Below are positions 32,489 through 58,154 of a stretch of 64,000 nucleotides of DNA, in pieces. Both the position numbers and the translations under genes were made by a program. Each line of letters starts with the position of its first letter. Position 1 is the stretch's first letter. Source of the stretch: Nocardioides astragali (GTDB taxonomy: Bacteria > Actinomycetota > Actinomycetes > Propionibacteriales > Nocardioidaceae); the NCBI RefSeq assembly GCF_024436375.1, contig NZ_JAFMZM010000002.1, positions 124,001 to 188,000 of the forward strand, written 5' to 3'. The notes below the pieces were generated by a model, which made no database searches, had not been told where the DNA came from, and was given only the letters and a program-made list of their open reading frames with translations.

Positions 32489-32524
32489 GGGACCGCGGTC
32501 CCCAGTGCATGGGACGAAGGTCCC
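32489..32524 (-). promoter_or_regulatory. DevR/DosR-like box pair upstream of doxX copy 1
   Basis: GGGACCGCGGTCCC (32489-32502, a perfect palindrome) and GGGACGAAGGTCCC (32511-32524) start 22 nt apart. This is the strongest pair in the window. The nearer box is 73 nt upstream of the doxX start. The core resembles the DosR consensus GGGACT-N2-AGTCCC. Confidence 0.8.
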
Positions 32525-32530
32525 GACCTT

Positions 32531-34156
32531 TCAGGCAGGCAGGGCGAGATCTCTGCGGCGCATGGCCAGGGTTGCGACACCGGCGAGCGCGGCGCAGACC
32601 GCCACCAGGGCAACCACCGGACCCGGGCTGATGGAGACGGCGGGTGCGTTGGGCACGTGCGAGAACGGTGAGAGGTCCATCAGCCACGACGGCAGGCCGA
32701 GCGACGGGCCGAACATCGGACCCACGAAGATGGCGAACACCACCAGCACCCAGGACAGCCCCACCGACCACCTCGGCAACAGCATGACGAGCGCGAGGAC
32801 CGCGGCGCCGAGGACCGCGATAGCAGGGAGCTGGACGAGCGCAGCGCCGACGAGGTCACGGAGCAGCGAAGGAGTGTCTCCCAGGACCATTCCACCGGCG
32901 ATGACCATGGCCACCGCGAAGAGCAGGACCAGCAACGCGGCGCCGACGAGGGCGTTGACGGCGTACGCCGAGAGCCAACGAAGACGGGAGACAGCGGTTC
33001 CGAGCACAGGCTCCAGCGTCCCTTGAGCCTCATCATGGTGCAGCCGAAGCAGGAGGGTCACGACATAGGCGGCCACAGCCAGACCGGCCACCTGCATCAT
33101 CGACGCCCAGTAGGCCCCGAGCAGGTCCGCATCACCGCCGAAGGCGGCATACCACTCAGTCGCCGCTCCCTCGAGGCCGCCGATCTGTTCGCTGAGCGCA
33201 CCGAAGACCAGGCCGAAGCCGACCAGCCCGATTGCCCAGCCGAGCAGCGCGCCGCGCTGCAGCCGCCAGACGAGACCGGAAGGGCTCAGCAGGCTCGGCC
33301 GCGCACGGGCGGCACCTCTGCGCTCGGGCCACATGCCCCTGCCGACGTCGCGCCTGCCGGCGAGGAGGACCGCCCCCGAGGTCAACAGTCCGAGCGCGAG
33401 CGCGGAGAGACCCGCAGGCCACCACAGGTTGTCGGCAAACGGCCGCATCTGCTGGCTCCACCCGATCGGCGAGAGCCAGGCCGGCCATGCGCTGGTCACC
33501 CGAAGGGCAGCGGAGTCGACAGTGCCGAGCATGTTGCCCGTGGCCGCGAGCAGGAACGAGGCGCCGAGAGCTGCAGCGGCGAGACCCGTGGCCCCGCGAG
33601 TGGTCGACGCCAGCTGCGAGGTCACAGCCGCGACGCCGGTGAACGCCACCCCCACCAGCGCGATCGAGATGCCGGCTACCAGCGATCCCGTGACCGGCTG
33701 TCCCGCGACGATCATGCCGAGCCCGAGCAGTCCGGCCAGGACGAGGTTCGCCGCGAGCGCGACGATGACAGCCGCGCCTATCGAGGCGTAGCGACCGACG
33801 ACGCCGGCGCCCAACATCTCCTCACGACCGAGCTCCTCGGACTGGCGGGTGTGGCGAACGACGGCGAAGACACTCATGAGGGCGGCGAGCACCGCTAGCG
33901 TGAGTCCGTCTCGATGCATCGTGTAGCCCCCGACCGTCGGGCCTGTCACGAGGCCCAGCACCCGCATCCCCGGGTTCTCGACGACGATCTGGGTGTCCGG
34001 CGCCAGAAGCTCGGGATGCTTGGTGTAGCTGTCCTCGAACATGGCGGTGGTGGCAGCCAGGAAGGCAGCCATGCCGAGGGTCCAGGCGGGCAGGGTGATC
34101 CGGTCGCGCCGCAGGGCCAGGCGGACCAGCCGCATCGTCCCGGTGAAGCCGCTCAT
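32531..34156 (-). CDS. Large ABC-2 exporter permease B
   Basis: This 541-residue protein has two ABC-2 units, each with the family motif (VVRHTRQSEELGREEMLGAG; LLRLHHDEAQGTLEPVLG). It has the same architecture as permease A at 29206-30804. The ATG at 34156 has GAGGG just upstream and overlaps the ATPase stop codon by 4 nt. A frame extending to 34498 is a shadow of the ATPase gene. It ends only 7 nt before the DevR-type box pair of doxX copy 1. Confidence 0.88.
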   Translation of the reverse strand: MSGFTGTMRLVRLALRRDRITLPAWTLGMAAFLAATTAMFEDSYTKHPELLAPDTQIVVENPGMRVLGLVTGPTVGGYTMHRDGLTLAVLAALMSVFAVVRHTRQSEELGREEMLGAGVVGRYASIGAAVIVALAANLVLAGLLGLGMIVAGQPVTGSLVAGISIALVGVAFTGVAAVTSQLASTTRGATGLAAAALGASFLLAATGNMLGTVDSAALRVTSAWPAWLSPIGWSQQMRPFADNLWWPAGLSALALGLLTSGAVLLAGRRDVGRGMWPERRGAARARPSLLSPSGLVWRLQRGALLGWAIGLVGFGLVFGALSEQIGGLEGAATEWYAAFGGDADLLGAYWASMMQVAGLAVAAYVVTLLLRLHHDEAQGTLEPVLGTAVSRLRWLSAYAVNALVGAALLVLLFAVAMVIAGGMVLGDTPSLLRDLVGAALVQLPAIAVLGAAVLALVMLLPRWSVGLSWVLVVFAIFVGPMFGPSLGLPSWLMDLSPFSHVPNAPAVSISPGPVVALVAVCAALAGVATLAMRRRDLALPA

Positions 34157-35088
34157 CGCGCCCTCACCACCTCGGCAACGGCACCCGCCCCACGCCCGGC
34201 GATGTCCTCGTCGTAGTGGCGCAGGAACAGCTCCTCCAGTGTGGGCGGCGAGGTGACCATGGACCGCACCTCGAGGTCGACCAGGTGCCCGAGCACGCGG
34301 TTCAGCTCGCCAGGGTCGACGCTGAACTCCGCGTGGCCGCCGTGCACACGGGCGTCGTGCACCCCGGGCCAGCGTGTCACCGGCTCCAGCGGCCTCGTGG
34401 TGTCGACCACCACCGACGTCCGGGTGAGATGGCGCAGGTCGTCGAACGTGCCGCTCTCGGCCGCCCGACCCGCCCGGATGATGGTGACGCGGTCGCACAA
34501 CGCCTCGACCTCGGACAAGATGTGGCTGGAGAGCAGGATGCTGCGGCCGTCGGCGCGGAGTTCTTGGACGACGTCTTGGAACACCGCTTCCATCAGCGGG
34601 TCGAGACCGGAGGTCGGCTCGTCCAGCAGGTAGAGCTCCACCTCGGAGGAGAACGCCGCCACCAGGGCGACCTTCTGCCGGTTGCCCTTGGAGTAGGCGC
34701 GGATCTTCTTGGTCGGGTCGAGCTGGAAGCGCTCGACCAGCTCCTCCCGGCGGGACGCGTCGAGGGTTCCCCGCAGCTCGCCCAGCAGGTCGATCACCTC
34801 ACCACCCGTGAGGTTGGGCCACAGGTTCACCTCACCAGGCACGTAGGCCAGTCGACGGTGCAACGCCACCGCGTCGCGCCACGGGTCACCGCCTAGCAGT
34901 TCGACGTGACCGCCGTCGGCGCGCAGCATCCCGAGCAGGACGCGGATGGTGGTTGTCTTCCCGGCGCCGTTCGGCCCCAGGAAGCCGTGCACCTCGCCCG
35001 CCTCGACCCGCAGGTCCAAGTGGTCGAGGGCCCGCGTCCGGGACCCGAAGTCCTTCACCAGTCCCGAGACCGCGATCGCAGTGGTCAC
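34153..35088 (-). CDS. ABC exporter ATP-binding protein B
   Basis: This 311-residue ATPase has Walker A GPNGAGKTT, signature YSKGNRQKVALVAAF and Walker B LYLLDEPTSGLDPLM. It shares long blocks with ATPase A, for example LGGDPWRDA, LWPNLTGGEVID and HLTRTSVVVDT. The GTG at 35088 (MTTAIAVSGLVKDFG) follows AAGGAAG at a good distance and was preferred to the ATG at 35136. With permease B it forms a second copy of the exporter unit. Confidence 0.92.
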   Translation of the reverse strand: MTTAIAVSGLVKDFGSRTRALDHLDLRVEAGEVHGFLGPNGAGKTTTIRVLLGMLRADGGHVELLGGDPWRDAVALHRRLAYVPGEVNLWPNLTGGEVIDLLGELRGTLDASRREELVERFQLDPTKKIRAYSKGNRQKVALVAAFSSEVELYLLDEPTSGLDPLMEAVFQDVVQELRADGRSILLSSHILSEVEALCDRVTIIRAGRAAESGTFDDLRHLTRTSVVVDTTRPLEPVTRWPGVHDARVHGGHAEFSVDPGELNRVLGHLVDLEVRSMVTSPPTLEELFLRHYDEDIAGRGAGAVAEVVRAR

Positions 35089-35217
35089 GGTGACCACTTC
35101 CTTTCCAGTCGGATTCTGGAGCCTGTTCGTCTCCACCTTCAGGACACGGCAACCGCACCTGATCCAACAGGGCCAAATGCCACCGAGATGACCGGTCTCT
35201 TGGCTCGCAGCTGGACG

Positions 35218-57934: not shown

Positions 57935-58067
57935 GATGAAGCTCCTTCTCGAGGGTGTGCGGGATGGTGGCTGACCGTGGCGGGGCAACGGACGGGATGA
58001 ACGAGCCGGTCGAGGGTGGTGGGTCGTCTCATGCTCCGAGCGTAGGAATCGCGGGGACCCCACGCTG

Positions 58068-58103
58068 CGGCCGTAGGTCCCGTGCCCCCGGGACCTTGTG
58101 CAC
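58068..58103 (-). promoter_or_regulatory. DevR/DosR-like box pair upstream of alcohol dehydrogenase 2
   Basis: The proximal CGGCCGTAGGTCCC (58068-58081) and distal GGGACCTTGTGCAC (58090-58103) start exactly 22 nt apart. The pair is 134 nt from the dehydrogenase start. Confidence 0.62.
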
Positions 58104-58118
58104 GGGGCTGGCGGATGC

Positions 58119-58154
58119 CTGACGAAGGGCCCGCGCGACGATGACCTTCGACCC
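58119..58154 (+). promoter_or_regulatory. DevR/DosR-like box pair upstream of the gap-oxidoreductase operon
   Basis: CTGACGAAGGGCCC (58119-58132) and ATGACCTTCGACCC (58141-58154) start 22 nt apart. The second, read on the minus strand, is GGGTCGAAGGTCAT, very close to the proximal box of USP 2. It ends 74 nt before the GAPDH start. Confidence 0.6.

What the first reader, a model, noticed from the sequence alone, without database searches (positions are those of the whole stretch)
32489..58154. Twelve promoters share a paired DevR/DosR-like box with a fixed 22-nt offset
Seen directly: twelve upstream regions contain two 14-bp motifs whose starts are 22 nt apart (23 at 40475 and 47407). The distal copies tend to GGGACCNNGGTCCC (32511, 36178, 38883, 47495) and the proximal ones to GGGCCGNNGGTCAT (38861, 47407; 58141 on the minus strand). 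Pairs start at 32489, 36156, 38059, 38861, 40475, 42323, 47407, 47495, 52548, 55863, 58068 and 58119. Twenty-two bp is about two helical turns, so both dimers would sit on the same DNA face. The core resembles the M. tuberculosis DosR box (GGGACTNNAGTCCC), and a DosR-like regulator is encoded inside the island. The strong-distal, weak-proximal arrangement is not one I know to be described as a rule.
Basis: partly seen in the sequence, partly recalled or inferred. Interest (0 to 1): 0.85.

Follow-up and report, generated by a model that had tools for sequence, protein, structure and literature searches.

The report
Paired dormancy-regulator boxes at fixed spacing
A Nocardioides-like bacterium carries fifteen pairs of a short DNA box, the two boxes of each pair 22-23 bases apart and most pairs just ahead of a gene start, which likely let a DevR-type regulator bind as two cooperating dimers beside RNA polymerase, much as its tuberculosis relative does; the arrangement is of a known kind, but the strict spacing shared with many related bacteria would make it a handle for finding low-oxygen gene sets.

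Summary
All twelve pairs are in the sequence, and three more were missed (28936, 43872, 55676). With a matrix trained on 80 other loci, the window has 11 offset-22 pairs, against a mean of 0.23 (maximum 2) in 200 dinucleotide shuffles. The offset recurs in relatives: 76 non-redundant pairs against a mean of 12 at other offsets. A composite pattern (box, 22 nt, box, TG, ANNNT) hits 57 of 296 genomes of the class; with offset 26 it hits 9 of 296. A -35-like TG follows the proximal box in 13 of the 15 pairs and a -10-like NANNNT starts 23-24 nt on, also in 13, so the regulator likely binds as two dimers on one DNA face and contacts RNA polymerase. It is a clear DevR/DosR relative; the genome has two more copies (89% and 64% identical) and a GAF-type kinase near one. 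'Strong distal, weak proximal' is not a rule: 40 against 42 in 93 non-redundant promoters; the poorest part is the half-site touching the -35. Tandem Dev boxes with cooperative binding and -35 overlap are already described for M. tuberculosis, and two published probes from it measure 22 and 23 nt. A clean new member of a known kind. Binding and low-oxygen induction are untested.

The parts
28936..28971 (-).
   Evidence: scores 9.1 and 7.3; Abhydrolase; RBS and ATG 133 nt on
32489..32524 (-). Box pair (proximal 32489, distal 32511, offset 22), leftward promoter with -10-like GAGAGT; RBS and ATG at 32422 (ORF 31814-32422, no Pfam match; an ABC transporter ATPase ORF follows)
36156..36191 (-). 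Box pair (proximal 36156, distal 36178, offset 22) upstream of a leftward universal stress protein gene (within ORF 35218-36618); GAGCAT at +23, no TG, no RBS-start found
36690..36725 (-). Single proximal box 36690 with TG and TACCGT -10; the distal position 36712 is only a half match (score -1.6); ahead of the pyridoxamine-oxidase-type gene 36210-36653. Not counted among the 15 pairs
38059..38094 (-). Box pair (proximal 38059, distal 38081, offset 22); RBS and GTG at 38006 for gene 36696-38006 (no Pfam match for the longer ORF)
38861..38896 (-). Box pair (proximal 38861, distal 38883, offset 22); gene 38187-38789; boxes and spacing aligned with six Nocardioides relatives, the proximal box poor in one of them (L003)
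40475..40511 (-). Weak box pair (proximal 40475, distal 40498, offset 23) ahead of the DUF4389 gene 38932-40422
40551..41204 (-). DevR/DosR-type response regulator (receiver plus LuxR-type HTH); ATG at 41204 is my reading of the translation
   Evidence: best solved relative is DevR 3c3w, E 8e-70
42323..42358 (-). Box pair (proximal 42323, distal 42345, offset 22) ahead of alcohol dehydrogenase 41240-42253 and, about 36 nt behind it, the regulator gene: likely autoregulation. TG but no NANNNT at the usual place
43872..43907 (-).
47407..47443 (-). Box pair (proximal 47407, distal 47430, offset 23) ahead of universal stress protein 46475-47371 and the P-type ATPase gene 43819-46491 behind it
47495..47530 (+). 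Box pair (distal 47495, proximal 47517, offset 22) ahead of cation-transporting P-type ATPase 47649-50189 (no RBS-start found by the simple rule)
52548..52606 (+). Three boxes (52548, 52570, 52593) ahead of DUF305 gene, ATG at 52657
55676..55712 (-).
55863..55898 (+). Box pair (distal 55863, proximal 55885, offset 22) ahead of universal stress protein, ATG at 55934; here the proximal box is the strong one
58068..58103 (-). Box pair (proximal 58068, distal 58090, offset 22) ahead of zinc alcohol dehydrogenase, ATG at 57934; TACGCT at +23, but no TG
58119..58154 (+). Box pair (distal 58119, proximal 58141, offset 22) ahead of glyceraldehyde-3-phosphate dehydrogenase 58229-59242

Best explanation
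Fifteen pairs of DevR/DosR-type boxes, each pair 22-23 bp apart and thirteen of them followed directly by a -35-like TG, likely recruit two cooperating dimers of a phosphorylated DevR-type regulator that would switch on a stress and low-oxygen island in a Nocardioides-like genome. Shown: boxes, spacing, TG and -10 geometry, conservation in relatives, and a DevR-type regulator in the island. Inferred: that the regulator (or one of its two paralogues) binds them, that 22 bp (about two helical turns) puts both dimers on one face, that binding is cooperative, that the proximal dimer contacts RNA polymerase at the -35 and activates, and that low oxygen is the signal, read by the GAF-type kinase encoded near the 89%-identical regulator copy.
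For: Offset: window 11 at 22 against a mean of 0.60 at other offsets, shuffles 0.225; 80 loci 76 non-redundant against a mean of 12.0, maximum 23. The peak holds separately in Nocardioidaceae (39 loci, 37 against 5.85) and Micromonosporaceae (24 loci, 24 against 3.58). Promoter: in 100 pairs oriented by gene only, the bases after the proximal box are T 65%, G 61%; A 43% at +24 and T 42% at +28. The 8-nt spacer is 0.33 identical between promoters, expected 0.29, so the distance is kept and not the letters. Class: 81 hits in 57 of 296 genomes at offset 22, reversed-letter control 19 (my sum), and 9 hits in 9 of 296 at offset 26; all 57 carry a DevR-type protein against 220 of 296 overall (compared by eye; p 5e-9). 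Regulator: best solved relative DevR 3c3w, segment FLAEKTVKNYVS identical. Kinase: GAF, HisKA_3, HATPase protein at L188:8910-10484. Published M. tuberculosis probes: hspX spacings 35 and 22, fdxA 23.
Against: No binding, expression or oxygen data for this genome. 8 Frankia loci show no peak (1 at offset 22, background 0.50, 13 strong sites). Two boxes alone are not clearly enriched genome-wide (973 against 781 at offset 25, but 1517 for the reversed-letter control). The composite pattern needs few mismatches to be specific: 38 hits at <=3 mismatches against 27 for the reversed-letter control in this genome. 2 of 15 pairs lack the TG and 2 lack the NANNNT. Three DevR-type regulators could share or compete for the boxes. 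The 57-of-57 co-occurrence is confounded with genome size, and 8 of the 9 control-offset genomes carry a DevR-type protein too.
Confidence: 0.85

Rival explanations
1. The paired sites belong mainly to one of the two other DevR-type regulators (C8:531506 or C9:203786) or to another NarL-type regulator, and the 40551 product is not the main binder.
For: Three close paralogues in the genome (100, 89, 64% to the query) and 14 further NarL-like matches at 34-42%.
Against: The window's regulator lies inside the box-rich stretch and behind its own pair; the 89% copy would be expected to read the same DNA.
Confidence: 0.3
2. Overlap with the -35 means repression: the regulator blocks RNA polymerase rather than recruiting it.
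For: The proximal box abuts the -35 position.
Against: In the DevR system the same overlap goes with activation (PMC3029386, passages); the -35 letters are poor (TGCC, TGAC, TGTC), as expected of activator-dependent promoters (general knowledge).
Confidence: 0.08
3. The offset is a by-product of G+C-rich palindromes or of copied promoter modules.
For: 70% G+C window; one promoter is nearly duplicated at C8:532127; two boxes alone are not above the reversed-letter control genome-wide.
Against: Shuffles and other offsets give far fewer; the spacer letters are unrelated between promoters; non-redundant counting keeps the peak.
Confidence: 0.02

Closest known systems
DevR/DosR regulon of Mycobacterium tuberculosis (PMC3029386, PMC7018068 and PMC12919924, passages seen)
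   Same: Related regulator, same core box, tandem sites with a strong and a weak member, proximal site overlapping -35; the published hspX and fdxA probes hold spacings of 22 and 23 nt.
   Different: Different organism and gene set; here most pairs lie in one island; in hspX a third box is 35 nt away.
OsdR (SCO0204) regulon of Streptomyces coelicolor (PMC5069765, abstract, section 7 and passages seen)
   Same: DevR orthologue by that paper's account, whose predicted sites cluster around its own gene, with universal stress protein genes in the neighbourhood.
   Different: Sites there were predicted singly (43 sites, 27 units); the parts I saw give no spacing rule.

Membership tests
DevR/DosR response regulator | Receiver domain plus LuxR-type helix-turn-helix, closest to DevR | tested here: met
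   Response_reg and GerE; best PDB relative DevR 3c3w, E 8e-70, next VraR 7e-41; aspartate and recognition-helix segment conserved in that alignment
DevR/DosR response regulator | Partner histidine kinase with two GAF domains that bind haem | tested here: inconclusive
   No kinase among the window and island proteins scanned, which are most but not all; one with a clear and a partial GAF match, HisKA_3 and HATPase lies about 0.8 kb from the 89% copy on another contig; haem binding and pairing untested
DevR/DosR regulon promoter | Tandem Dev boxes at close spacing | tested here: met
DevR/DosR regulon promoter | Proximal box overlapping or abutting -35 | tested here: met
   TG at box end and NANNNT from +23, by sequence only; no mapped start sites
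DevR/DosR regulon promoter | Cooperative binding by phosphorylated regulator | not testable with these tools
   needs footprinting
DevR/DosR regulon promoter | Induction by hypoxia or nitric oxide | not testable with these tools
   needs RNA-seq

The most novel reading that the evidence does not exclude
Across Actinomycetes the DevR system uses one composite promoter: two boxes whose best half-sites face each other over an 8-nt spacer, TG at the -35, and a -10 starting 23-24 nt on. The two boxes act as one inward-facing unit of four half-sites whose weakest half is the one touching the -35. The inner half-sites carry the A of GGGAC in 126 of 262 positions against 76 of 262 for the outer ones (p 1e-5), not at control spacings (p 0.34); the class-level hits lean the same way (44 against 29 of 128 in 64 non-redundant hits, p 0.05; without this genome p 0.11). 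The signature would let dormancy regulons be read off genomes with no experiments.
Probability: 0.5. Interest if true: 0.6.

Novelty: new member of a known kind. Interest (0 to 1): 0.45.

Why it matters
It shows that the spacing of DevR-type box pairs is held to 22-23 bp in organisms far from the tubercle bacillus, and it ties that spacing to a -35/-10 geometry. That gives a testable rule for how two dimers and RNA polymerase are arranged, and a search pattern that would pick out low-oxygen regulons in unstudied actinobacteria, including harmless ones where the mechanism can be worked on easily.

Tried and rejected
Strong-distal rule: rejected as general. Two-box pattern without promoter elements: too noisy genome-wide. 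The S. coelicolor matrix alone gives the same peak but weaker. My first gene calls were revised where domains or start sites disagreed: long N-termini of 36696, 52549, 55718 and 56885 were shortened, a minus-strand universal stress protein replaced the plus-strand 35408 call, and the GAPDH gene 58229 was added; 32235 and 33023 remain uncertain. The NAR 2011 and J Bacteriol 2008 DevR papers and Park 2003 are not held; that the 2011 paper calls tandem arrangement a hallmark and tested altered spacing is recalled, not seen. Searches aimed at a spacing rule or a Nocardioides DosR regulon listed two papers in all, PMC3207917 and PMC3029386; the passages I saw of them state no fixed spacing; I read neither whole, and this covers this library only. 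PMC6448022 (passages) scans single DosR motifs. Groups of loci were assigned by hand from record titles. Box identity is partly due to how the pairs were chosen; only the spacer figure is free of that. Pairs 36690 and 55676 were found by anchoring on TG and -10, so those letters are no evidence there. No structure prediction was run.
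Full report
What was checked. The window lies at contig C9:124001-188000 of a 5.17 Mb, 99% complete genome. The six closest of the 80 regulator relatives fetched are Nocardioides, 88-91% identical, so the source is likely a Nocardioides. The twelve reported pairs are all there. Small corrections: at 40475 the partner is in register at +23; the 52548 box is the upper member of a triplet 52548/52570/52593; the promoter at 58119 points to a plus-strand gene and the one at 58068 to a minus-strand gene.

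Is it more than chance. A palindromic matrix was built from 337 boxes in 80 loci around DevR-type genes of other genomes, with the window left out. At offset 22 the window has 11 pairs with summed score >=14; at offsets 15-70 other than 21-23 the mean is 0.60 and the maximum 2. 200 dinucleotide shuffles give a mean of 0.225 and a maximum of 2. 47407 passes at 23; 40475 (9.5) and 52548 (11.7) score lower. A matrix from 26 published S. coelicolor OsdR sites gives 7 at 22 against a mean of 1.04, maximum 4.

Is it conserved. With the plain core GGGNCNNNNGNCCC, 270 strong sites in the 80 loci have a partner of at least 6 of 8 letters at distance 22 in 68 cases, against a mean of 11.4 at other distances. 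The peak is present in 39 Nocardioidaceae loci (37 against 5.85), 24 Micromonosporaceae loci (24 against 3.58) and 9 others (6 against 1.09), and absent in 8 Frankia loci (1 against 0.50) (groups by hand). Near-identical pairs counted once, 76 remain at 22, 41 at 23 and 35 at 21, against a mean of 12.0 and a maximum of 23 elsewhere. An alignment of the 38861 promoter with six relatives keeps the distal box in all and the proximal box at the same distance in six of the seven, the seventh (L003) being poor, while most of the flanks change; the stretch around the -10 and the ribosome site is kept too. Between promoters the 8-nt spacer is only 0.33 identical, near the 0.29 expected, so the distance is kept, not the letters.

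Promoter anatomy. In 100 pairs (the window's included) oriented by the neighbouring gene only, the proximal box is followed by T (65%) and G (61%), and 24 and 28 nt on by A (43%) and T (42%), that is, by TG at a -35 position and a NANNNT -10, about 17 nt apart if the -35 begins at that T. Of 195 anchored proximal boxes in the loci, 40 have a box of score >=6 at 22 upstream, against 0.88 at background offsets. By a simple rule (ATG or GTG with a ribosome-site match, ORF of 80 codons), 9 of 16 promoters have a start 50-74 nt behind the box, one at 35, two at 133, one only at 305, and three none in 400 nt.

Genome and class. The composite pattern finds 38 places in this genome at <=3 mismatches (27 for the reversed-letter control). 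Twelve have <=2 mismatches, of which 10 lie in C9:156-214 kb, one beside the second regulator on C8 and one on C11. With the offset at 26 there are 10 places, none with <=2 mismatches. In 296 genomes of the class, <=1 mismatch, 81 hits fall in 57 genomes at offset 22, with 19 for the reversed-letter control (control summed by me), and 9 hits in 9 genomes at offset 26. All 57 carry a DevR-type protein at E <=1e-60, which 220 of 296 do (compared by eye; p 5e-9; genome size is a confounder; 8 of the 9 control-offset genomes carry one too). Without TG and -10 there is no clear excess: 973 against 781 at offset 25 over 39 genomes, but 1517 for the reversed-letter control.

The regulator. Its best solved relative is DevR of M. 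tuberculosis (3c3w, E 8e-70), with the segment FLAEKTVKNYVS identical. It sits about 36 nt behind an alcohol dehydrogenase gene whose promoter is pair 42323, so it likely regulates itself. Two more copies exist: C8:531506 (89%) and C9:203786 (64%). A protein with one clear and one partial GAF match, HisKA_3 and HATPase is encoded at L188:8910-10484, about 0.8 kb from the 89% copy. The genes behind the pairs (universal stress proteins, P-type ATPases, polyphosphate kinase 2, alcohol dehydrogenases, GAPDH, sulfide:quinone reductase) and those in the continuation of the island (phosphoketolase, arginine deiminase, ornithine carbamoyltransferase, amino acid permease; another universal stress protein) fit a stress and low-oxygen programme, which is inference.

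Polarity. Distal stronger 40, proximal stronger 42, tie 11 in 93 non-redundant anchored pairs. In the window 9, 5 and 2 among 16 promoters. The distal and proximal consensus differ: GGGnCCnAGGTCCC against GGGACCTTCGGCCC. In 83 anchored pairs outside the window, the half-site touching the -35 carries the favoured letter in 10, the outer distal half in 28, and the two halves facing each other in 43 and 55. In orientation-free counting inner beats outer 126 to 76 of 262 (p 1e-5), not at control spacings (111 to 99 of 290, p 0.34). The class-level hits point the same way without reaching significance when this genome is left out (39 against 27 of 122, p 0.11).

Comparison. PMC3029386 (passages) describes DevR of M. 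tuberculosis as binding two or more closely packed sites, a primary and a secondary one, cooperatively, with the proximal site over -35. The probes printed in PMC12919924 (passages) have box spacings of 35 and 22 (hspX) and 23 (fdxA). PMC5069765 (abstract, section 7 and passages) predicts OsdR sites singly. So the arrangement is of a known kind; the wide conservation of the 22-23 nt offset together with the promoter elements is what these calls add.

Noticed in passing
C8:531506-532132 (in L188) and C9:203786-204406 (in L186/L187): Two further DevR-type regulators, 89% and 64% identical to the window's; the first lies near a GAF-type histidine kinase and a near copy of the 38861 promoter.
   Followed up: partly
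window 46475-47371 and 55934-56776: The universal stress protein starts at 47371 and 55934 lie 35 nt behind the proximal box, about where transcription should begin, so these messages may be leaderless.
   Followed up: no
window 53520-55617: Sulfide:quinone reductase matching NCBIfam's type III selenoprotein-subtype model over its full length in an ORF without internal stop, with a DsrE2-type protein gene next to it.
   Followed up: no
window 21564-23923: A sulfite-exporter-type (TauE) gene and a gene with metallo-beta-lactamase and rhodanese domains, a second sulfur-related spot in the window.
   Followed up: no
L186:1437-16518: Phosphoketolase, arginine deiminase, ornithine carbamoyltransferase and an amino acid permease, with further box pairs nearby: the island continues past the window.
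   Followed up: partly
window 38187-38789: A roughly 200-aa ORF without Pfam match; its end is matched in six Nocardioides loci shortly behind the regulator gene, and an ORF of similar length follows the C8 regulator (homology not tested).
   Followed up: no
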